NCBI RefSeq assembly: GCF_021531475.1
Contig: NZ_JADYTX010000024.1
Coordinates: 1 to 33,380, forward strand
Length of the DNA: 33,380 bases
From: Fusobacterium perfoetens
Lineage (GTDB): Bacteria; Fusobacteriota; Fusobacteriia; Fusobacteriales; Fusobacteriaceae
Direction: 5' to 3'
Part shown: piece after piece, positions 142 through 27,536 of the stretch
Layout of the letters: each line of letters starts with the position of its first letter
Position numbering within the stretch: position 1 is the first letter of the stretch
Program-made: the position numbers and the translations under genes
Notes under the pieces: generated by a model
Told to the model about the DNA's origin: nothing
The model's database searches: none
What the model saw: only the letters and a program-made list of their open reading frames with translations

Positions 142-446
142 AAGACTGTTGCATTTTTTATTAAAAAAAATATAGATTAAAATTATGAAAAAATAAAACC
201 AACAAAGATAAATGCTATAAAAAAATTTAAGAATTACATAATTTATTAAAAAAATTAAAACGTCAAGAATTTATATATCTAAAATAATACTACCTCAACG
301 GAATAAATTTATCATTTTTAGTAAAATAAATTTTAGTTAATAATTTTCTAGAAGTATTAAGTAATTCTAAATTTTTTAAATTAAATCAAATTTATAAAAT
401 ATGAAGTGATTTTTAATCTTATATTTCTTAAGTTTACAACAGCCTT
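142..446. repeat. Degenerate copy of the CTGTTGCA palindromic repeat family; fills the gene-free left end
   Basis: The ends match the better copies at 22418 and 27321: a left end with CTGTTGCA (146-153) followed by a TATAGATTAAAA-type segment, and a right end with TTTTTAATCTTATATTTCTTA followed by ACAACAGCC. The middle (about 190-400) is A/T-rich and no longer matches the conserved core of the family. I see no coding capacity in 1-459. The right end lies 14 bases from the 3' end of the ldh-like gene, so the inverted ends could help terminate its transcript. Identification is by eye. Confidence 0.55.
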
Positions 447-7278: not shown

Positions 7279-7283
7279 TTAAA

Positions 7284-7480
7284 AAAAATATAAGATTAAA
7301 AATTACTACAGATTACGAAAAATTGATTTATTATAAGCTCATTTCACTAAAATCACAAAACTCGCTAACGCTCAAACAGTTGTGATTTTTAGCGTTCAAT
7401 ATCGCTTTATAAATCTAATTTTTCTCCATAATTTTCGTAATTTTTAATCTATATTCTTATTAATAAAAAATGCAACATCT
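7284..7480. repeat. Palindromic repeat copy 2, left end missing
   Basis: About 195 bases that align by eye along their whole length with the copies at 22418 and 27321. The conserved core (7348-7400) holds the inverted arms AATCACAAAACTCGCT and its partner ending in GTTGTGATTT. The right terminal TGCAACA is at 7471-7477; the left CTGTTGCA end is absent, replaced by the A-rich run after the 7000-7278 gene. The element folds as one long imperfect hairpin. It separates two converging genes (7278 plus, 7493 minus) and could terminate both. Confidence 0.75.
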
Positions 7481-7492
7481 CTCTTTTTATTT

Positions 7493-9004
7493 TTAATTTT
7501 TTTCAGTTCTTTTAATATAATTTAAAATCTCTGATATTGTCATATCCACTATCGCAATAATTTTTTCTCTAAATAAATTAACTATATTTCTTATAGATTG
7601 AGATAAATTAATAGCATTTTCTTCTTTCTCTACTCCTAAATTTCTGAAGAAATATATTGTCATAACTCCGATAACTGTTCCTGCTATAATATCTGAAAGA
7701 GGAGAGGCAAATAAAATTCCATATATCCCTCTTCCTACCTCTTTATTTTCAAAAAATCTACAAAGTCCCAAAGTAAATATTACAAAGCAAAACATATCTC
7801 TAAGGATAGAGGCTATCATTGAGTGAATAGGTTTTCCAATAGATTGGAAGAATATAGATGAAATCTTTATAAAGCAAGTTACAAAGCAAAAACTTAAGAA
7901 AATACGGAAACTTTTTGTTGCAAAATCCATATAAAGTTCATTTTGTTTTCCAAAAATTAAAATTATCATCTCTGGATATAGTTCAAATATCAAAGTGGAT
8001 AAAATCCCAACTCCAAGAGATGAGATTAAAATAAAACGATAAGTTTCTTTTACTCTATCTAATTTCTTAGCTCCATAGTTATAACCTAAAATCGGTTGTC
8101 CACCTAAAGCTATTCCAACAGCGATATTATTTACAATAGTATAAACCTTTGTCTGAATGCTAAAAACAGAGATTGGAATATCGCTACCATAGATAGAAGT
8201 AGCTCCATATTTTGCCAAAGTAATATTACTAAGTAGCGTCATAACTACCATTGAAATCTGAATAATAAAAGTAGAACCACCTAGCATAATAAGATTTTTT
8301 AGCATATCTTTTTTTATGTGGAAACTCTCTTTGGAAAGTTTAAAACTTTTTGGTTTTAAAAAATATAATCCACAAATAATAAAAGATACCCCTTGTCCAA
8401 TCACTGTGGCTATTGCTGCTCCCTCAATCCCCCAATCTAACCAAAATATACAGATAGGGTCTAGAATAATATTTAAAATAGCTCCCGAACACATTGCCAT
8501 CATAGCATAAGTTGGACTTCCGTCAGCTCTTATCATACTGTTCATCACATTAAACATCAGATATGCTGGAAAAAATAAAGCTATAATTTCAAAATAATTG
8601 CAAGCTAAATCAAGAGTAGCCTCTGACGCACCAAATAAAATCATTAAAGGCTCACAAAATAAAATACAAACTCCCGAAAGAATAACACTTATTATAAAAG
8701 TAGTTGTAAGTCCCGTCCCAACACATCTGTGAGCACTTTCACTGTCTTGACGTCCAGAACAGATACTTAAATAAGAGGCTGCTCCATCTCCAACACACCA
8801 AGCAAAAGCATTACAAATACAAATAATGGGAAAAGATATTCCTGTGGCAGCGTTTCCCAAATAACCAAGCTCACTATTTCCAATAAAGATTTGGTCTACA
8901 ATGTTGTAGAGTGCACTTATCAGAAGTCCCATAACACAAGGTACAGAGAATTTTAAAAGCAGTTGAGATACTGGCTTTTCTCCTAAAATTTTGTTTTCTT
9001 CCAT
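7493..9004 (-). CDS. MATE-family efflux transporter
   Basis: 503 residues, a polytopic membrane protein with about 12 transmembrane segments arranged as two halves, the hallmark of MATE sodium- or proton-coupled exporters (NorM/DinF/MepA-like). The start LGEKPVSQLLLKFSVPCVMGLLISALYNIVD-type N-terminus with the NxVDQIFIG segment near 35-42 and the second-half LGYNYGAKK (near 305) are typical MATE signatures. The C-terminal 40 residues form a hydrophilic/amphipathic tail. Start ATG has AAGGAGG about 11 nt upstream. Its leader carries a purine riboswitch, which suggests the substrate or its physiology is linked to purines; this is inference, not a substrate assignment. Confidence 0.9.
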   Translation of the reverse strand: MEENKILGEKPVSQLLLKFSVPCVMGLLISALYNIVDQIFIGNSELGYLGNAATGISFPIICICNAFAWCVGDGAASYLSICSGRQDSESAHRCVGTGLTTTFIISVILSGVCILFCEPLMILFGASEATLDLACNYFEIIALFFPAYLMFNVMNSMIRADGSPTYAMMAMCSGAILNIILDPICIFWLDWGIEGAAIATVIGQGVSFIICGLYFLKPKSFKLSKESFHIKKDMLKNLIMLGGSTFIIQISMVVMTLLSNITLAKYGATSIYGSDIPISVFSIQTKVYTIVNNIAVGIALGGQPILGYNYGAKKLDRVKETYRFILISSLGVGILSTLIFELYPEMIILIFGKQNELYMDFATKSFRIFLSFCFVTCFIKISSIFFQSIGKPIHSMIASILRDMFCFVIFTLGLCRFFENKEVGRGIYGILFASPLSDIIAGTVIGVMTIYFFRNLGVEKEENAINLSQSIRNIVNLFREKIIAIVDMTISEILNYIKRTEKN

Positions 9005-9025: not shown

Positions 9026-9060
9026 AGCACAAAAACCGTAAACAATTTACTTTTGTGCAT
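9026..9060 (-). promoter_or_regulatory. Riboswitch expression platform hairpin
   Basis: After the aptamer the leader can form a long hairpin, GCACAAAA-GTAAA-TTG-TTTAC-GG-TTTTTGTGC. There is no proper U-tract after it and the ribosome binding site (9015-9021) lies 5 bases outside it. The segment 9036-9051 can instead pair with aptamer bases 9076-9091, so the two folds exclude each other. Confidence 0.55.
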
Positions 9061-9068
9061 TTTTTAAT

Positions 9069-9133
9069 GCCTTATAGTAAACTATTTACGGTAGTCTGTA
9101 GAAACGTCCACCCTATTGTGAACATATATAAGC
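9069..9133 (-). promoter_or_regulatory. Purine (guanine-type) riboswitch aptamer
   Basis: Minus-strand sequence shows the purine aptamer parts in order: P1 (GCTTATA with TATAAGGC), P2 GTTCAC/GTGGAC with a loop ending in GG, the invariant J2/3 GTTTCTAC (9105 to 9098), P3 AGACTA/TAGTTT closed by the canonical loop CCGTAAA, and J3/1 ACTAT. The loop-loop partners (GG in L2, CC in L3) are present. The specificity base equivalent to position 74 is C (complement of g9077), predicting guanine or a related 6-oxopurine rather than adenine. L2 looks one nucleotide shorter than in the B. subtilis xpt aptamer. Confidence 0.88.
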
Positions 9134-9145
9134 TCATTTCCTTTT

Positions 9146-9175
9146 AGAATATCATATTTTTACAGTTATTGTCAA
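9146..9175 (-). promoter_or_regulatory. Promoter of the riboswitch-MATE transcript
   Basis: Minus strand TTGACA (9175-9170), 18-nt spacer, TATTCT (9151-9146). Transcription would start near 9138, just before the aptamer P1 stem. Confidence 0.8.
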
Positions 9176-18485: not shown

Positions 18486-18790
18486 ATTAAAAATTACATA
18501 ATTTGGTTAAGATAAAAGAAAATTTTAAAAATTATATCTACCTATCAGTTTATATATTAAAAATTACGCAATTTATTCTATTCACCAAGTTAAAAGAAAG
18601 TATTAAGAATTATACCCACTCACCAATTTATATATTAAAAATTACGTAATTTATGGAAAAAATCTAGAGATAGCAAGTGATGTTGAACGCTAAAAAATGA
18701 CACTGTTTGAGCGTAGCGAGTTTGTCATTTTTAGTGAAACGAACTTAGCTAAATCAGATTTTTGGAATATGAAGTAATTTTTATATATAT
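18486..18790. repeat. Repeat-rich pstB-phoU gap: short tandem units and a degenerate palindromic repeat
   Basis: ATTAAAAATTAC recurs at 18486, 18556 and 18634 with partly similar sequence between, giving units of 70 and 78 bases. From about 18634 to 18790 the sequence matches the core of the palindromic repeat family: ATTTATGGA, TTGAACGCTAAAA, the arms AATGACACTGTTTGAGCG and GAGTTTGTCATTTTTAGTG, and GAAGTAATTTTTA. The CTGTTGCA ends are not preserved. No gene is visible. Confidence 0.6.
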
Positions 18791-22417: not shown

Positions 22418-22644
22418 AAAACTGAGGCTGTTGCAAATTTAAGGAATATAAGATTAAAAATTATTACAGATTCCGAAAAATTGATTTATTTAAAGCTCAC
22501 TCCATTAAAATCATAAAACTCGCTACGCTCAAACAGTTGTGATTTTTAGCATTACGTGTCACTTTATAAATCTAATTTTTCTCCATAATTTCATAATTTT
22601 TAATCTATATTCTCACTTATAAAAAATGCAACAGCCCCAGTTTT
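22418..22644. repeat. Palindromic repeat copy 4, complete with terminal inverted repeats
   Basis: 227 bases bounded by an 18-base inverted repeat: AAAACTGAGGCTGTTGCA (22418-22435) and, on the opposite strand at the other end (22644-22627), the same sequence with one G for A. Inside, the two arms match imperfectly over most of their length, and the centre holds ATCATAAAACTCGC and CAAACAGTTGTGATTTTTAG as inner arms. No ORF. It separates pstS from the response regulator gene, and its right end is followed by TTTT, so it can act as a terminator for pstS. Confidence 0.85.
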
Positions 22645-22645
22645 G

Positions 22646-22654
22646 TGCTATAAT
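22646..22654 (+). promoter_or_regulatory. Promoter of the two-component genes at the repeat edge
   Basis: TGC followed by TATAAT (22649-22654), an extended -10. The position of a -35 (22626-22631) falls inside the right terminal repeat and matches TTGACA at only three bases. Confidence 0.55.
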
Positions 22655-22682
22655 ATAGAAAAAAATTAGAAGGGGGAAGATT

Positions 22683-23369
22683 TTGAGAGTTTTAGTAGTA
22701 GAAGATGATAGTGAAATTCGTGAACTAATCGGTTATTTTTTAGAGAAAGAAAATTTTGAAATAGACAAGGTGGATAATGGACTTGACGCTCTTAAGATTT
22801 TAAAAAAGAATAAACATCAAGTGATAGTTTTAGACCTTATGATACCGGGACTTGATGGAAAAAACTTTGCAAAGATTGTAAAAAATCTACCTGAAGAATA
22901 TGGAAATCCAAAAATAATTATGGTTACAGCTAAGACTGAAATAGAAGATGTATTAGAGGGTTTGGAAATAGGTGCTGATGACTATCTTAGAAAACCTTTT
23001 GACCCAAGAGAACTTGTCTTGAGAGTTAAAAAACTTGTAAAAAATGATGAAATTTCAAAAAAAGAAATTGATGAAAATTATCGTTTTGAAAACATCACAA
23101 TAGATAATAGCAAACATATTGTAACTTATGATGAAAAAGAGATTGACCTTTCCAAAAAAGAATATGACTTACTTGCCCTTTTAATAAGAAATAAGGGGCT
23201 TGTAGTTACTCGTGATAAAATCCTAGATGAAGTTTGGAACAGTAGTTACTATACTGGAGATAGAACTGTAGATGTATATATCTCAAAACTTAGAGAAAAA
23301 CTTCCTATTCTTTCTGACTGTATCCATACTGTAAAAGGAGTTGGTTACAAATTAAAAGAAAAGAAATAA
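22683..23369 (+). CDS. PhoB/PhoP-type response regulator
   Basis: 228 residues starting at TTG 22683, with AGAAGGGGGAAG upstream. Receiver domain 1-115: acidic pocket E7-D8-D9, phosphoacceptor D51 in VLDLMIPG, T82 and K104. C-terminal OmpR-type winged helix about 130-226 with LSKKEYDLLALL, the recognition helix region DRTVDVYISKLREKL, and the final VKGVGYKL wing. It is next to pstS and the two Pho boxes lie in the adjacent divergent promoter, so a phosphate-starvation regulator is the best guess; sequence alone would also fit other OmpR-type regulators. The kinase gene overlaps or directly follows. Confidence 0.9.
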   Translation: MRVLVVEDDSEIRELIGYFLEKENFEIDKVDNGLDALKILKKNKHQVIVLDLMIPGLDGKNFAKIVKNLPEEYGNPKIIMVTAKTEIEDVLEGLEIGADDYLRKPFDPRELVLRVKKLVKNDEISKKEIDENYRFENITIDNSKHIVTYDEKEIDLSKKEYDLLALLIRNKGLVVTRDKILDEVWNSSYYTGDRTVDVYISKLREKLPILSDCIHTVKGVGYKLKEKK

Positions 23370-25045
23370 TTGCTGGACTTATAATTTTAATCTGCGAGAT
23401 TTTATTTGTAATTTTAAATACCTCTATGCTGTCTAATATTTACAAAGAGACTGAGAAAAATATTTTAAAAGAGGATACACTTCTTGTAAAACTTGTAGCT
23501 CACGGAAAACCTTTTGAAGAGTATGACGAGCTTTTTAAAGATACAAATATAAGATTTACTATTATAGACTATCAAGGTAAAGTTTATTTTGACTCAAAGC
23601 AACCTAATCAAGAGGTTATGGACAACCATTCTGGTAGACAAGAAGTTTTATCAGCTATCTATGGAAATAGTGGATTTGCTATAAGAAAAAGTAAAACTTT
23701 AGGTAGCTATTATGCTTATTATGCTACAAAATACAAGCTTTCACCAGAAGATAAATATATTATAAGAATTTCTGAAGATTATACTGAAAAAATGGAGCAG
23801 ATAAAAACTGTTGCTTGGATTTTAAGTCTGTTCTTTATATTCCTAAATTTTGTAAGTTATTTTTTCTATAAAAACTATCTAAAAAGAGATTTGGAAAATA
23901 AGATAAAAATAATGAAAGGTTTCTTAGAAAGTGGAGAGCTTGAAAGAAAGATTTTCTATGGTAGAGAGGAAAAATGGCTATATGAGTTTTGGGAAATCCT
24001 AGAAGAGTGGCAAAAAAATAATCTTGATAATATAGCAAAACTTGATTTTGAAAAGAAAATTTTGGATTTGATTATATCATCAGTTGATGCTTTTATAGGT
24101 CTTATTGACAACAATGGAAATTTTGTTTTAAAAAATAACTCCCTTAATCATCTATTGATTATCGACAGCCAAAAATATACTGAGAGTTTTAAATATATCG
24201 AGATAATAACCCTTATAAAAAATAGTATAACTCTTAAAAAAGATATTAGAAAAGAGGTATATGTAAACGGAATTAAAGAATATTTCTTAATCAGTGTAAA
24301 ATATATTAAGAAAAATGACCAGTTCCTAGTAACAATAAAAGATATTACTAGCACAAGAAGAACTGTGGAAATTCAAAAGAATTTCATAAGTAATGTCAGT
24401 CACGAGCTTAAAACACCTCTTACTAATATAAAAGGATATCTGATTGCCCTTGAAGATGCTCCAAAAGAGATAAGACTTAGATTTTTAAATATTATCAATA
24501 ACAATGTAGAAAAATTAGAAAATATAGTTTTAGATTTCCTTAATATCTCCAAGATAGAAAGCTCTAAAATTCTTCAAGTAGTTCCTGTAGAACCTAAACT
24601 TATAGAAGACCAAATTAGAGAATCTCTTTTTGGAATAATCAAAAGAAAAAAAGCAGAACTTAACTTCAATTGGAATCTTTTAGAGATAAATCAAGGTATG
24701 ATAAATACTGATAAAGAAAAACTTATTATGATACTTAAAAACCTTATTGAAAATGGAATTATTTATAATACATCTGATGTCCCTTCTATTAAGGTGGATA
24801 TTACAGAGGAAAAATCAAAATATCTATTCTCAGTAAAAGATAATGGTATCGGAATACCTCAGGATAAACTAAAAAAAGTATTCGAGAGATTTTATAGAGT
24901 TGATAAAGCTAGAACTAGTAATATGGGTGGTACAGGTCTTGGACTTGCCATTGTAAAAGAGCTTGTTGAACAATTTGGAGGAGAGATAGTTATTGAATCC
25001 TCTGAACACGAGGGAAGTAATTTTAGATTCTATTTCTTAAAATAA
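23351..25045 (+). CDS. PhoR-type membrane sensor histidine kinase, probable non-ATG start
   Basis: The first in-frame ATG (23426) gives 539 residues and cuts into the first membrane helix. The frame is open upstream and encodes KRKEIIAGLIILICEILF, a clear transmembrane start. The likely start is ATT 23351, 10 nt after AAAGGAG, giving 564 residues and overlapping the regulator's end; ATA 23366 is the alternative. A second helix (near 150) frames an extracytoplasmic loop of about 100 residues. Then a PAS-like region, the H box SNVSHELKTPL (phosphorylated His at 24401-24403), N box ILKNLIENGIIYN, G1 DNGIGIP, F box FERFYRVDKAR and G2 GGTGLGLAIV. Likely senses phosphate status through Pst/PhoU and phosphorylates the adjacent regulator. 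Confidence 0.85.
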   Translation: MKRKEIIAGLIILICEILFVILNTSMLSNIYKETEKNILKEDTLLVKLVAHGKPFEEYDELFKDTNIRFTIIDYQGKVYFDSKQPNQEVMDNHSGRQEVLSAIYGNSGFAIRKSKTLGSYYAYYATKYKLSPEDKYIIRISEDYTEKMEQIKTVAWILSLFFIFLNFVSYFFYKNYLKRDLENKIKIMKGFLESGELERKIFYGREEKWLYEFWEILEEWQKNNLDNIAKLDFEKKILDLIISSVDAFIGLIDNNGNFVLKNNSLNHLLIIDSQKYTESFKYIEIITLIKNSITLKKDIRKEVYVNGIKEYFLISVKYIKKNDQFLVTIKDITSTRRTVEIQKNFISNVSHELKTPLTNIKGYLIALEDAPKEIRLRFLNIINNNVEKLENIVLDFLNISKIESSKILQVVPVEPKLIEDQIRESLFGIIKRKKAELNFNWNLLEINQGMINTDKEKLIMILKNLIENGIIYNTSDVPSIKVDITEEKSKYLFSVKDNGIGIPQDKLKKVFERFYRVDKARTSNMGGTGLGLAIVKELVEQFGGEIVIESSEHEGSNFRFYFLK

Positions 25046-25055
25046 TTTATATATT

Positions 25056-25092
25056 AAAAGAAAGCCAGTTTTTATTCTGACTTTCTTTTTTT
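25056..25092. terminator. Bidirectional terminator between the kinase and the GH13 gene
   Basis: Arms AAAAGAAAGCCAG (25056-25068) and CTGACTTTCTTTT (25077-25089), 12 of 13 pairs, with Ts on the plus side; on the minus side the stem is followed by an A/T-rich tract. Confidence 0.78.
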
Positions 25093-25093
25093 A

Positions 25094-27148
25094 TTATTTA
25101 TTTAAATCTATATTAGAAATTACTAAGAATCCTAACTCTTTTATTTTTAAATTTAAAGTTTTTGTTGAAGTAAAATATTTTTTACCTTCAAACAACTCAT
25201 AAATAGCTTTACAATTTTTAACAGAGTTTATATTATCAAACTGTTTAAAATCAAACTCAAAATTATATTCTACAACTGGATTTCTATTTATCATAACCAT
25301 TATAAAGTTGTCTGTCCCTCTGCTCTTACCAAATTGGTCAACACCTTTATTTAAGAAACGGATATAACCATAAATGTCTTCATTAATAGAGAATTGTTTG
25401 AAATCCCCAGTTGAAAGAAGTGGATTTTTATTTCTGATACCAATTATTTTTTTATACCAACCAAGTAGGTCTTGATCCTCATTTCCCCAAGGATAAGTTC
25501 TTCTGTTGTCAGGGTCTTTTCCTCCTCTAACTCCAGCCTCATCTCCATAATAAATCAATGGAACTCCTGGGAATGTTAGTTGTACCAAGCTAAATAATTT
25601 TAAAAGACTAACTCCTAATCTCTTTGTAAGCTCATCTTTTAAAAGAAGTCTTTCCTTGTTTAAACTTGATTTATAAAGAGTATCTTTCATAAAGTTTCCT
25701 ATATTTTCACATACAGTAAGGATTCTCTCTACGTCGTGACTTCCTATCATATTTGTAAGAGAGTAAAAATTCTCTTTTGGATAGTTTTCACGAAGATTCA
25801 TAAAAGATCTACATACTTTTTCTGCATCATAATTATTATAGAAAAATTCTAATAATATTTTCTTAAATGGATAGTTGGTAACTGTATCAAGTTCCTCACC
25901 ACACATATACTCTCTTCTTTTATTATAGCTTATTTTATTAGTGGCATCTTCCCAAACCTCTCCTAATAAAATAGATTCATTATCAATCTCGTGGCATCTC
26001 TTTCTTAAAAGTTTCAGAAATTCTCCCGGTAACTCATCAGCTACATCTAATCTCCAACCTTTTATCCCAAGGTTTAACCATTTTGCAACTACACTGTCTT
26101 CATCTCTTATAATATAATTTAAGAAATTAGGGTTCATCTCATTTACACAAGGCAGGTCTGCATTTCCCCACCAAGATACATAATCATTTGGATAATTTTT
26201 AAAAGTATACCAATCATAATATGGAGATCCAACAGAGTTGTAAGCTCCCACTGAATCATAATTTCCAAATCTATTAAAATATTTACTATCTCTACCAGTG
26301 TGGTTAAATACTCCGTCTAAGATAAGATTTATATTATTTTCTTTTAAACTATTAACAAGGTTTGCAAAATCCTGCTCTGTTCCTAAAATAGGGTCAATCT
26401 CTTTATAATCTCCAGTGTCATAACGGTGATTACTAGCAGATTGGAAAATAGGATTTAAGTAAACAAGATTTATTCCAAGCTCCTTTAAATAATCTATTTT
26501 TTGCTCAATCCCTTTTAGATTTCCACCAAAGAAATCCCAACGTAAAATATCTCCGTTTTCCCCTTTTATATACACTGGCAAATCGTTCCAGTTTCCATAT
26601 ATAAAGGTATTTCTTTTGTGGGCAGACAGACTTCCATAAGGATTTCCATTATAAAATCTATCTGGAAATATTTGATAAATTATCGACTCTTTATACCAGT
26701 TAGGAGTTTTACTTCCAGCATAAAAAGTTGTCATCTGATAAGCTGGTGGATTATATAGATATATTTGTCCTTTTCCTCCTAGTTTATCAGTATTATTTCC
26801 ATAATATTTTATTTCACCATTTTTTAATGATATCTCAAAATAGTAAAAAACAAGTCTTGGCAATGTTCCTGTCTTATATGTATAAGAATAAGTTTTATTA
26901 TTTTCATCTTCTAAATTATCCACAGGTTTCATCTCATAAGCACAATGAACTGCAGGTTTTGAAACATCTAAATTATCTACAAAAAAATGTACATAAACAC
27001 AGTTTATCATAGCATTTTTATTTATTTCTATATTAAAAGTTACAGATTGATTACAAGGAACAGCCCCAAAAATAGACTTATATTTTGTATCTTGTGAATC
27101 AAAAGTTACGTATTCATCTTTCCAAGATAAATCAATTAGTTCTACCAT
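25094..27148 (-). CDS. Cytoplasmic alpha-amylase family (GH13) glycosidase, neopullulanase-like
   Basis: 684 residues from ATG 27148, chosen because GAGGGAAG lies 5 nt upstream; in-frame codons further up have no ribosome site. No signal peptide, so it acts inside the cell on imported or stored alpha-glucans. The first 130 residues form a beta-rich N-terminal domain as in cyclomaltodextrinases and neopullulanases. The GH13 barrel follows: region I DGVFNHTG (about 276-283), region II GWRLDVADE with the nucleophile Asp (about 363-371), region III GEVWED with the acid Glu (about 394), and region IV SHD (about 469). Catalytic residues are all present. Maltodextrin or pullulan hydrolysis is likely; exact specificity is not decided. 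Confidence 0.88.
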   Translation of the reverse strand: MVELIDLSWKDEYVTFDSQDTKYKSIFGAVPCNQSVTFNIEINKNAMINCVYVHFFVDNLDVSKPAVHCAYEMKPVDNLEDENNKTYSYTYKTGTLPRLVFYYFEISLKNGEIKYYGNNTDKLGGKGQIYLYNPPAYQMTTFYAGSKTPNWYKESIIYQIFPDRFYNGNPYGSLSAHKRNTFIYGNWNDLPVYIKGENGDILRWDFFGGNLKGIEQKIDYLKELGINLVYLNPIFQSASNHRYDTGDYKEIDPILGTEQDFANLVNSLKENNINLILDGVFNHTGRDSKYFNRFGNYDSVGAYNSVGSPYYDWYTFKNYPNDYVSWWGNADLPCVNEMNPNFLNYIIRDEDSVVAKWLNLGIKGWRLDVADELPGEFLKLLRKRCHEIDNESILLGEVWEDATNKISYNKRREYMCGEELDTVTNYPFKKILLEFFYNNYDAEKVCRSFMNLRENYPKENFYSLTNMIGSHDVERILTVCENIGNFMKDTLYKSSLNKERLLLKDELTKRLGVSLLKLFSLVQLTFPGVPLIYYGDEAGVRGGKDPDNRRTYPWGNEDQDLLGWYKKIIGIRNKNPLLSTGDFKQFSINEDIYGYIRFLNKGVDQFGKSRGTDNFIMVMINRNPVVEYNFEFDFKQFDNINSVKNCKAIYELFEGKKYFTSTKTLNLKIKELGFLVISNIDLNK

Positions 27149-27320
27149 ATTCTTCCCTCTCATAGAATTTTTATTTTTATAATATTCTCCCAAGTATATT
27201 ATAAAACAAAACCAAAGAAATGTATACAATAAAATTTTTTATAAAAAATAAAATTATCAAAAACTATTCAAAATTATAGATTTTCTTTAATTAAAATTTT
27301 TATCTTTTACAAAAAAAATA

Positions 27321-27536
27321 AAAAGCTGTTGCATTCTCATTAAAAGAATATAAATTAAAAATTACGGAAATTATGGAGAAAAATTATATTTATAAAGCAC
27401 ATTGAACGCTAAAAATCACAACTGTTTGGACGAAGTGAGTTTTGTGATTTTAGTGAGATGAGCTTTTAATAAATCAATTTTTCGTAATCTGTAGTAATTT
27501 TTAATCTTATATTTCTTAACTTAGCAACAGCTCCCT
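27321..27536. repeat. Palindromic repeat copy 5, in reverse orientation to copy 4
   Basis: About 215 bases with terminal AAAAGCTGTTGCA (27321-27333) and, inverted, AGCAACAGCT (27523-27532). The reverse complement of copy 4 aligns along its length, including TTGAACGCTAAAAATCACAA, the inner partner TTTTGTGATTTTAGTGA, and TTTTTAATCTTATATTTCTT. It follows the 3' end of the patB-like gene and precedes the GH13 promoter region. The rest of 27149-27549 is A/T-rich with no gene seen. Confidence 0.85.

What the first reader, a model, noticed from the sequence alone, without database searches (positions are those of the whole stretch)
22418..27536. Family of about 220-bp imperfect palindromes with CTGTTGCA ends (five copies in the window)
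Copies at 142-446 (degenerate), 7284-7480, 18634-18790 (core), 22418-22644 and 27321-27536, in both orientations, all intergenic and mostly at gene 3' ends. The two good copies have inverted ends containing CTGTTGCA, inner arms AAATCACAA/TTGTGATTT and no ORF, which fits a non-autonomous mobile element. The ends resemble those of some IS families (IS6-type ends contain CTGTTGCA), an analogy only. No target-site duplication could be made out.
Basis: partly seen in the sequence, partly recalled or inferred. Interest (0 to 1): 0.52.

Follow-up and report, generated by a model that had tools for sequence, protein, structure and literature searches.

The report
Mobile DNA hairpins with conserved tip
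The repeated palindromes are real and are copies of a mobile, non-coding hairpin family found in many fusobacterial genomes, mostly at gene ends: the stems are rewritten freely but stay paired, while the tip of the hairpin keeps nearly the same letters, and a similar tip caps hairpins in a few bacteria of other phyla.

Summary
Confirmed and enlarged. The five copies are real and belong to a genome-wide family: 32 covariance-model matches in the 2.02-Mb genome. Matches occur in 24 of 61 genomes of the family Fusobacteriaceae and 25 of 98 of the phylum, with over 40 copies in three genomes and none in most. Copies move: three window copies are absent at the matching sites of G001 and G003.

CTGTTGCA ends mark one subfamily only. 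What is conserved is a long hairpin. In 74 fusobacterial copies 95.2% of stem cells pair and 34 of 39 pairs show compensated changes (537 double-change cells, 144 in shuffles), without G-U excess (27 G-U, 51 A-C of 2693). The tip, consensus AACTCGCTWCGCTCAAACAG, is nearly constant; on one strand 60 of 70 parsed tips read as a short stem with a GNA or GNNA loop, a loop class known from very stable DNA mini-hairpins, though only 24 of the 60 have the two G-C pairs those need. A similar tip caps long hairpins in a few Bacteroidota, Pseudomonadota and Bacillota replicons.

Best reading: a non-autonomous element mobilised as folded DNA, landing mostly at gene 3' ends and probably working there as a terminator. 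The mobiliser was not found; IS6 and Y1 transposases do not fit. No target duplication.

The parts
142..446 (-). Copy 1: composite. Outer arms of an A-type element (375-445 and 146-190) with a degenerate second core (225-372) in place of its own tip
   Evidence: BLAST pieces, CM match E 0.004, sequence read
7283..7488 (+). Copy 2: A-type element lacking the left CTGTTGCA arm; core 7295-7449
18633..18785 (-). Copy 3: D-type core (central stem TGACA/TGTCA), no CTGTTGCA arms, between genes that I read as pstB-like and phoU-like; absent in G001, G003, G004
18509..18654 (.). Direct repeat of 68 bases at a spacing of 78 (84% alike) that includes the 3' end of copy 3
22418..22644 (+). Copy 4: full A-type element; arms GCTGTTGCA at 22427-22435 and TGCAACAGC at 22627-22635; core 22453-22605
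22517..22536 (+). Tip AACTCGCTACGCTCAAACAG of copy 4, between covarying stem arms
27321..27536 (-). Copy 5: full A-type element in the other orientation; core 27353-27505
27422..27441 (-). Tip of copy 5 (AACTCACTTCGTCCAAACAG on the - strand)

Best explanation
A family of non-coding mobile hairpins. Each unit is a core of about 154 bases that folds into one long imperfect hairpin with a nearly constant tip, often wrapped in further inverted arms that differ between species and subfamilies. Shown here: dispersal, recent bursts, absence at matching sites in relatives, nesting of one unit inside another, maintenance of pairing while the stem letters change, and a bias to gene 3' ends. Inferred: the unit is mobilised in trans as a folded single DNA strand, recognised by shape and by the tip rather than by terminal sequence; it prefers, or survives best, in or beside existing terminator hairpins and then serves as a terminator. 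The enzyme is unknown and may be a host factor.
For: Dispersal and mobility: 47 HSPs of copy 4 in G000, which include the self-match and some reverse matches at the same copies, and 32 CM matches; identical cores at two unlinked loci. Sites without the element: copy 4 in G001, G003, G004 (84-86 or 38 bp between the flanking matches instead of 223-277); copy 5 in G001 (110 bp instead of 308) and G003 (another gene lies between); copy 3 in G001, G003, G004 (10-37 bp instead of about 360); R1 finds no copy there, best E 0.43 in 13 loci. Patchy: 24 of 61 family and 25 of 98 phylum genomes. Nesting: window 142-446 and C39:13741-14020.

Pairing: 95.2% of cells paired, 34 of 39 pairs with double changes, covariation score 0.529 against 0.164 shuffled and at most 0.095 when slid. 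Within the recent A burst (17 copies) 20 double paired changes where 0.7 are expected if sides change independently, and paired positions change at 4.3% against 10.4% for unpaired ones. The outermost 9 bp of 14 A copies also match copy by copy (112 of 126 against 98.5 shuffled).

DNA rather than RNA pairing: G-U 27 against A-C 51 of 2693 cells, while 7 tRNAs from held fusobacterial loci show G-U 9 and A-C 0 of 161. Tip: GNA 53 and GNNA 7 of 70 parsed of 74; GNA and GNNA loops with two or more G-C pairs are described as extraordinarily stable DNA mini-hairpins (PMC4686876, passages).

Gene ends: convergent 30, tandem 34, divergent 5 of 72 copies, 3 undetermined; convergent against divergent p = 2e-5.
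Against: No mobiliser, no autonomous copy, no target duplication found. Of the 60 GNA/GNNA tips only 24 have two G-C pairs in the tip stem; 36 have one (counted). ViennaRNA's DNA parameters do not fold the tip mini-hairpin. Within the A burst one-sided changes lean slightly to G-U (22 against 14 A-C). The consensus terminator scan finds none at copies 4 and 5; it allows loops of 3-8 bases only. G002 and G005 have no hairpin at the copy-4 site, and copy 3 sits where relatives have no terminator, so insertion into a terminator is not general. The pairs rest on an alignment fitted to the model, and those on a structure predicted from the same 17 copies; both lean towards pairing. Copies are related, so counts are not independent events.
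Confidence: 0.5

Rival explanations
1. RNA-level element: a dispersed 3'-end hairpin (terminator or mRNA stabiliser, like ERIC or NEMIS) whose pairing is selected in the transcript; spread is by some unrelated mobility or by conversion.
For: Bias to convergent pairs and gene 3' ends. A-run before and T-run after the arms in many A copies and in most G024/G025 copies read (by eye). Relatives G001, G003, G004 have a hairpin plus T-run at the copy-4 site (-19 to -21 kcal/mol per 100 bases) and G001 and G003 at the copy-5 site (-30 and -24 per 110 bases). One-sided changes in the A burst lean slightly to G-U.
Against: No G-U excess over A-C across 74 copies, although 7 tRNAs show it. The most conserved part is the tip, which termination does not need. 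Pairing extends over 66 predicted pairs in the A copies, more than a terminator needs.
Confidence: 0.22
2. Mutation bias: palindromes correct themselves by template switching during replication, so the arms covary without selection; the unit is otherwise an inert repeat.
For: Clustered double changes in one young copy (four pairs in L012); double changes are already common among closely related copies.
Against: Stem positions change less than unpaired ones (4.3% against 10.4%), which correction alone does not predict. A copies keep shared arm mismatches. The constant tip is unexplained.
Confidence: 0.13
3. Classical MITE of an insertion sequence with double-stranded terminal repeats (IS6-like GGCTGTTGCA ends).
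For: Most A copies share GCTGTTGCA-like ends; G006 and G028 have similar ends around other cores. Draft assemblies can lack multi-copy insertion sequences.
Against: IS6 model over cut-off in 0 of 8 genomes. No target duplication. The ends themselves vary in a compensated way. Many copies have other ends or none. Most of the 9-mer places that I read outside the copies lie in coding sequence.
Confidence: 0.1
4. REP-like element moved by a Y1 (HUH) transposase of the IS200/IS605 or RAYT type.
For: Such enzymes act on single-stranded hairpins (PMC8266576, passages). G000 has one Y1 match and G024 four.
Against: G006, G025, G028 and G035 have 23 to 47 copies and no Y1_Tnp match; G037 has 5 Y1 matches and no copies. 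Core of 154 positions, not 20-50.
Confidence: 0.05

Closest known systems
Dispersed intergenic palindromes (ERIC, NEMIS and the Yersinia and Enterococcus families of PMC1590033, passages read; Rickettsia palindromic elements recalled)
   Same: Hairpin folding, intergenic position, dispersed repeats without coding capacity; 3'-end clustering for some
   Different: No such tip or rewriting of the stem under covariation is mentioned in the passages read; none of these families was compared by sequence here
REP/REPIN with TnpA_REP (PMC8266576 passages; PMC3116915 seen in a search listing only)
   Same: Single-stranded hairpin logic, intergenic, multi-copy
   Different: REPs are 20-50 nt and preceded by a tetranucleotide, most often GTAG; here 154-position cores, and no Y1 match in four copy-rich genomes
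Integron attC sites (recalled)
   Same: Recognition by folded-strand shape with variable stem sequence
   Different: Not tested; no integrase was recognised among the window's ORFs, by my reading
Very stable DNA mini-hairpins with GNA or GNNA loops (PMC4686876, passages)
   Same: 60 of 70 parsed tips have such a loop on one strand
   Different: Only 24 of the 60 have the two G-C pairs named there; the paper's passages concern aptamers, not genomic repeats

Membership tests
MITE of an IS6-family element | Terminal inverted repeats shared by all copies | tested here: not met
   Complete GCTGTTGCA-like arms in most A copies and in some G006 and G028 copies; other copies differ
MITE of an IS6-family element | Target-site duplication of fixed length (8 bp for IS6, recalled) | tested here: not met
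   15 copies, lengths 4-10, offsets 0-8: no signal
MITE of an IS6-family element | Related transposase in the genome | tested here: not met
   0 of 8 genomes over cut-off, one weak match in G035; draft assemblies may lack repeats
REP/REPIN | Palindrome of 20-50 nt | tested here: not met
   Core is 154 positions
REP/REPIN | Conserved GTAG tetranucleotide before the palindrome | not tested
   Not scanned
REP/REPIN | TnpA_REP/Y1 gene in copy-rich genomes | tested here: not met
   No match in G006, G025, G028, G035
Intrinsic terminator | Stem-loop followed by T-run at a gene 3' end | tested here: inconclusive
   3'-end bias and T-runs, but the consensus scan is negative at copies 4 and 5 and the hairpins are long
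Known RNA family (Rfam 15) | Match at gathering score | tested here: not met
   Window: only a tRNA and a purine riboswitch. In 14 related loci no match at gathering score lies on the tip hairpin; below it, miRNA-precursor models match the long palindrome of L312 (65.1 bits, 211 needed). Other fusobacterial copies were not scanned
Integron attC | Cassette array and IntI nearby | not tested
   Only the window's ORF list was read

The most novel reading that the evidence does not exclude
A cross-phylum class of selfish or domesticated DNA hairpins defined by the tip AACTCGCTWCGCTCAAACAG and by shape, with stems free to change. A folded single DNA strand, held at its tip by a GNA-type mini-hairpin, is the unit that a widely shared host factor recognises and inserts, often into other hairpins, so that nested palindromes build up.
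Probability: 0.3. Interest if true: 0.82.

Novelty: new variant of a known kind. Interest (0 to 1): 0.62.

Why it matters
Small dispersed palindromes are common in bacteria, but how many of them move is unknown. Here one family can be followed across genera, with stems rewritten around one nearly constant tip. That separates shape from sequence and gives a direct test of whether a folded DNA strand is the mobile form. Filled and unfilled sites in related fusobacteria, and the 3'-end bias, also make it a natural test of how mobile hairpins become terminators.

Tried and rejected
Tried and rejected or without result.

(a) IS6 parent: none over cut-off. The 9-mer GCTGTTGCA has 83 places in G000, 0 for the reversed control. 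By my count 15 lie in element copies, 53 in 40 regions that I fetched (read) and 15 were not fetched. Of those read most look like coding sequence (by eye; the in-frame reading Ala-Val-Ala is my inference); seven regions hold short bare hairpins with the same or similar arms. I saw no single end beside a transposase, but did not search these regions for transposases.
(b) Y1 transposase: does not follow copy number.
(c) Target duplication.
(d) DNA-uptake-signal idea for GCTGTTGCA: dropped, since most places read are coding; PMC1852404 (passages) names Fusobacterium nucleatum among organisms that use intrinsic terminators widely.
(e) sRNA-Xcc1: one Rfam match, over its gathering score, lies elsewhere on L220 (555-640), not at the hairpin.
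(f) Phage and plasmid records: the 225 bases of copy 4 give no phage match and one weak plasmid piece (Priestia, 27% of the query). The 34-base tip query gives 19 phage records, 17 of them one Vibrio-phage gene; these were not examined for hairpins.
(g) Two further regions (C18, C20) compared with G001, G003, G004 were not cleanly syntenic. Only C20:22547-22875 gave a contrast, 85 bp in G004 against 1272 bp, which is more than the two copies alone.
(h) G024 against G025: three syntenic blocks in 140 kb; the largest (22.9 kb) holds two copies, both shared.
(i) Literature: ten searches. The listings showed no paper on the tip letters or on a Fusobacterium repeat of this kind; the library holds open-licence papers only, and most listed papers were not opened.

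The tip motif also occurs without a hairpin: of 81 places in IMG/VR loci, 64 have fewer than 6 perfect flanking pairs, many of them in a few recurrent sequence families; some of the 64 (L223, L230, L272) still fold into longer imperfect hairpins. The motif alone is not evidence of the element.

Mended: the range of copy numbers, gaps at the matching sites, identity range of subfamily A, arms outside A, the count of mini-hairpin tips with two G-C pairs, the coding annotation in Aureibacter, and the Rfam hits below threshold.
Full report
1. Is it there? Yes. The sequence at 22418-22644 and 27321-27536 shows a long imperfect palindrome with GCTGTTGCA and GCAACAGC arms. Both fold far beyond shuffles: -59.7 kcal/mol, z -7.9, and -53.9, z -5.6, none of 200 shuffles as good. 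Copies 2 and 3 are confirmed and copy 1 is a degenerate composite. No ORF of 90 aa overlaps them.

2. How many? Against the window's own genome (2,016,703 bases, 92 contigs) the 225 bases of copy 4 give 47 HSPs at E <= 0.01, the self-match and some reverse matches included; besides itself 16 are near full length at 85-91% identity (40 of 150 candidates were scored). A covariance model R1 of the core (25 copies; 154 positions, 39 pairs) finds 32 copies at E <= 0.001. Cores fall into subfamilies: A (17 copies, 85-100% alike, L002 and L005 identical), B (L018, L020), C (L022, L023, L028) and D (L024, L027, L029). Complete CTGTTGCA-like arms are seen in most A copies; L022 (C) has a left arm alone.

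3. Distribution. In the genus, BLAST finds pieces in 2 of 6 congeners. With R1, 24 of 61 genomes of the family match at E <= 0.001 (at most 49 candidates scored per genome, so high counts may be low): G035 47, G024 43, G028 41, G000 32, G025 26, G006 23, G042 18, others 1-10, and 37 genomes none. In the phylum 25 of 98 match at E <= 1e-4, with at most 31 candidates scored each. The family is Fusobacteriaceae: the only genome-collection hit is Fusobacterium mortiferum An814, on a contig of 137,902 bases, the length of G027's contig C229, and the same sequence lies around the match. That the window's family is the same follows from the kinship column.

4. Mobility. At the copy-4 site the flanking matches lie 38 bp apart in G004, 86 in G001 and 84 in G003, against 223-277 bases of query. 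G004, G001 and G003 have a hairpin with a T-rich tail there (-21.2, -19.6, -19.2 kcal/mol for 100 bases); G005 and G002 do not. G000 and G004 share the tail AGTTTTGTG(C/T)TATAATA next to the element or hairpin; G001 and G003 have similar tails. At the copy-5 site G001 and G003 have their own short hairpins (-30.2 and -24.1 for 110 bases) and no element; in G003 another gene lies between. At the copy-3 site G001, G003 and G004 have 37, 30 and 10 bp between the flanking matches and no element. R1 finds no copy in the 13 site loci, best E 0.43. So three window copies are absent from relatives; two of them sit where relatives have a terminator-like hairpin. The order of events (gain here or loss there) is inferred; the D-type copy between two genes that relatives keep tightly spaced reads most simply as a gain.

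5. Nesting. Two copies sit at the centre of another copy: window 142-446 and contig C39:13741-14020. Short bare hairpins made only of the outer arms also occur (three exact cases in G000, two in G006). Pieces lacking the centre occur at C43:8422-8556 and C12:4789-4888. The outer arms of A copies vary in a compensated way: 112 of 126 terminal pairs match within copies against 98.5 when arms are exchanged among 14 copies (p 0.0002), and the next 4 bases also pair more than expected (39 of 56 against 26.3, p 0.0006), but not those further out.

6. Structure under constraint. In A2, 74 fusobacterial copies aligned to R1 (70 distinct rows; the 25 used to build R1 are among them), 95.2% of 2693 cells pair, 34 of 39 pairs have double changes, and 537 cells carry double changes. 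Shuffles give 75.5%, 25.1 and 144.3; sliding the partners gives at most 54.5%, 21 and 109. The alignment leans towards the model, and copies are not independent. In species such as G035 and G006 the stem letters have little in common with those of G000, by eye, yet the hairpin persists around a nearly constant tip. Within the A burst alone, on a structure predicted from the same copies: 1105 cells, 51 one-sided changes (22 G-U, 14 A-C), 20 double paired changes against 0.7 expected and 2 double unpaired; paired positions change at 4.3%, unpaired at 10.4%.

7. DNA or RNA? If pairing were selected in RNA of one strand, G-U should exceed A-C. Across A2 there are 27 G-U and 51 A-C cells, and 8 and 11 after leaving out six poorly paired positions. 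Seven distinct tRNAs from held fusobacterial loci show 9 G-U and 0 A-C of 161 pairs in ARAGORN's structures, a small control. Copies lie in both orientations to genes, so this test is indirect, and the A burst leans slightly the other way. The tip on the bottom strand reads as a short stem with a GNA (53) or GNNA (7) loop in 60 of 70 parsed tips; 4 of 74 could not be parsed. PMC4686876 (passages) describes GNA and GNNA loops with at least two G-C pairs as extraordinarily stable DNA mini-hairpins. Against this: 24 of the 60 tips have two G-C pairs and 36 have one (counted), and ViennaRNA's DNA parameters do not form the mini-hairpin.

8. Gene context. I classified 30 copies in 29 G000 loci: 15 between tandem genes, 11 convergent, 4 divergent (two of the four are a tandem pair of copies at one site); A copies alone 7, 10 and 0. 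Of 42 copies in 40 loci of other species, 19 are convergent, 19 tandem, 1 divergent and 3 undetermined; 7 overlap a short mechanical ORF (ORFs are mechanical and flanks short). Convergent against divergent 30 to 5, p = 2e-5.

9. Beyond the phylum. The pattern AACTCRYTNNRYTCARACAGT finds 7 IMG/VR stretches; in 5 it lies in the loop of a hairpin with unrelated stems. The shorter ACTCRCTWCGYTCARACA finds 93 stretches, 80 of them fetched. Of 81 places examined, 17 have 6 or more perfect flanking pairs (1.25 expected after exchanging flanks), but 8 of the 17 share one stem, and the other 64 fail this test. The hosts of these contigs are not known here. In PLSDB the tip gives 16 records at E <= 10. 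I fetched 7: one is in a Pseudomonas chemotaxis gene, an annotation that five more, unfetched, records share. In five of the other six the tip caps a long hairpin (Variovorax paradoxus, Butyrivibrio fibrisolvens, Aureibacter tunicatorum, where a 189-base hypothetical CDS is annotated over it, Fusobacterium vincentii, whose record carries hardly any annotation, and Parabacteroides distasonis); in Ilyobacter polytropus the predicted fold does not show it. Four records (Lysinibacillus, two Enterococcus, a second Aureibacter) were not examined. R1 matches 17 of 21 loci that I had picked as hairpins at E < 1 (15 at E < 0.01, best 7e-9; not L230, L311, L313, L316) and 0 of 8 with the motif but no hairpin or in coding sequence. 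This suggests one wide family, but convergence on the tip cannot be excluded.

10. What it is not. IS6. Y1. Rfam: with the reservation in the membership table. Described stem-loop families: the word Fusobacterium occurs in neither PMC1590033 nor PMC2267715.

11. How it most likely works. Shown: a mobile, bursting, hairpin-constrained, 3'-end-biased family with a nearly constant tip. Inferred: movement as a folded DNA strand, by an unidentified and perhaps host-borne enzyme, with terminator use after landing. I put this whole chain at 0.5; the first half (mobile hairpin family) I hold at about 0.85.

Noticed in passing
L113 (G024) and L127 (G025); L144 (G031), L147 (G033) and L146 (G034): Copies at what looks like the same intergenic site lie in opposite orientation in related species (read by eye), as if the hairpin flips in place or was gained twice.
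   Followed up: partly
L119 (G024) and L125 (G025); G024:C8:314041 and G025:C3:1045284: Copies shared at matching sites in two related species, so some copies are old and vertically kept.
   Followed up: partly
L215, L218, L220, L222, L223, L230, L235, L239, L242, L249, L258, L272, L311, L314, L316: Upstream of the tip hairpin in these loci lies a second hairpin of the form TTACTTTCTTT..AAAGAAAGTAA followed by (C)CAAAGAA, with variations (by eye). I did not see it in L216, L219, L312, L313, L315 or the fusobacterial copies read. The two hairpins may form one composite element.
   Followed up: no
IMG/VR loci such as L224, L227, L233, L246, L261: The 18-base tip motif recurs in non-hairpin sequence families (..TTTAACTCGCTTCGCTCAAACAAACC.. 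and ..ACTCGCTTCGCTCAAACACTGGCGC..), for which I have no explanation.
   Followed up: no
window 18509-18654: A 68-base direct repeat at a spacing of 78 next to copy 3, including its 3' end.
   Followed up: partly
window 9055-9151 (-): Purine riboswitch (Rfam RF00167) upstream of the - strand ORF at 7493-9004, which I read as MATE-like.
   Followed up: no
G004:C34:2675-6383: A 3.7-kb stretch of G000 contig C18 is 96% identical in G004 while other matches of that region to G004 are 73-85%, suggesting recent transfer.
   Followed up: no
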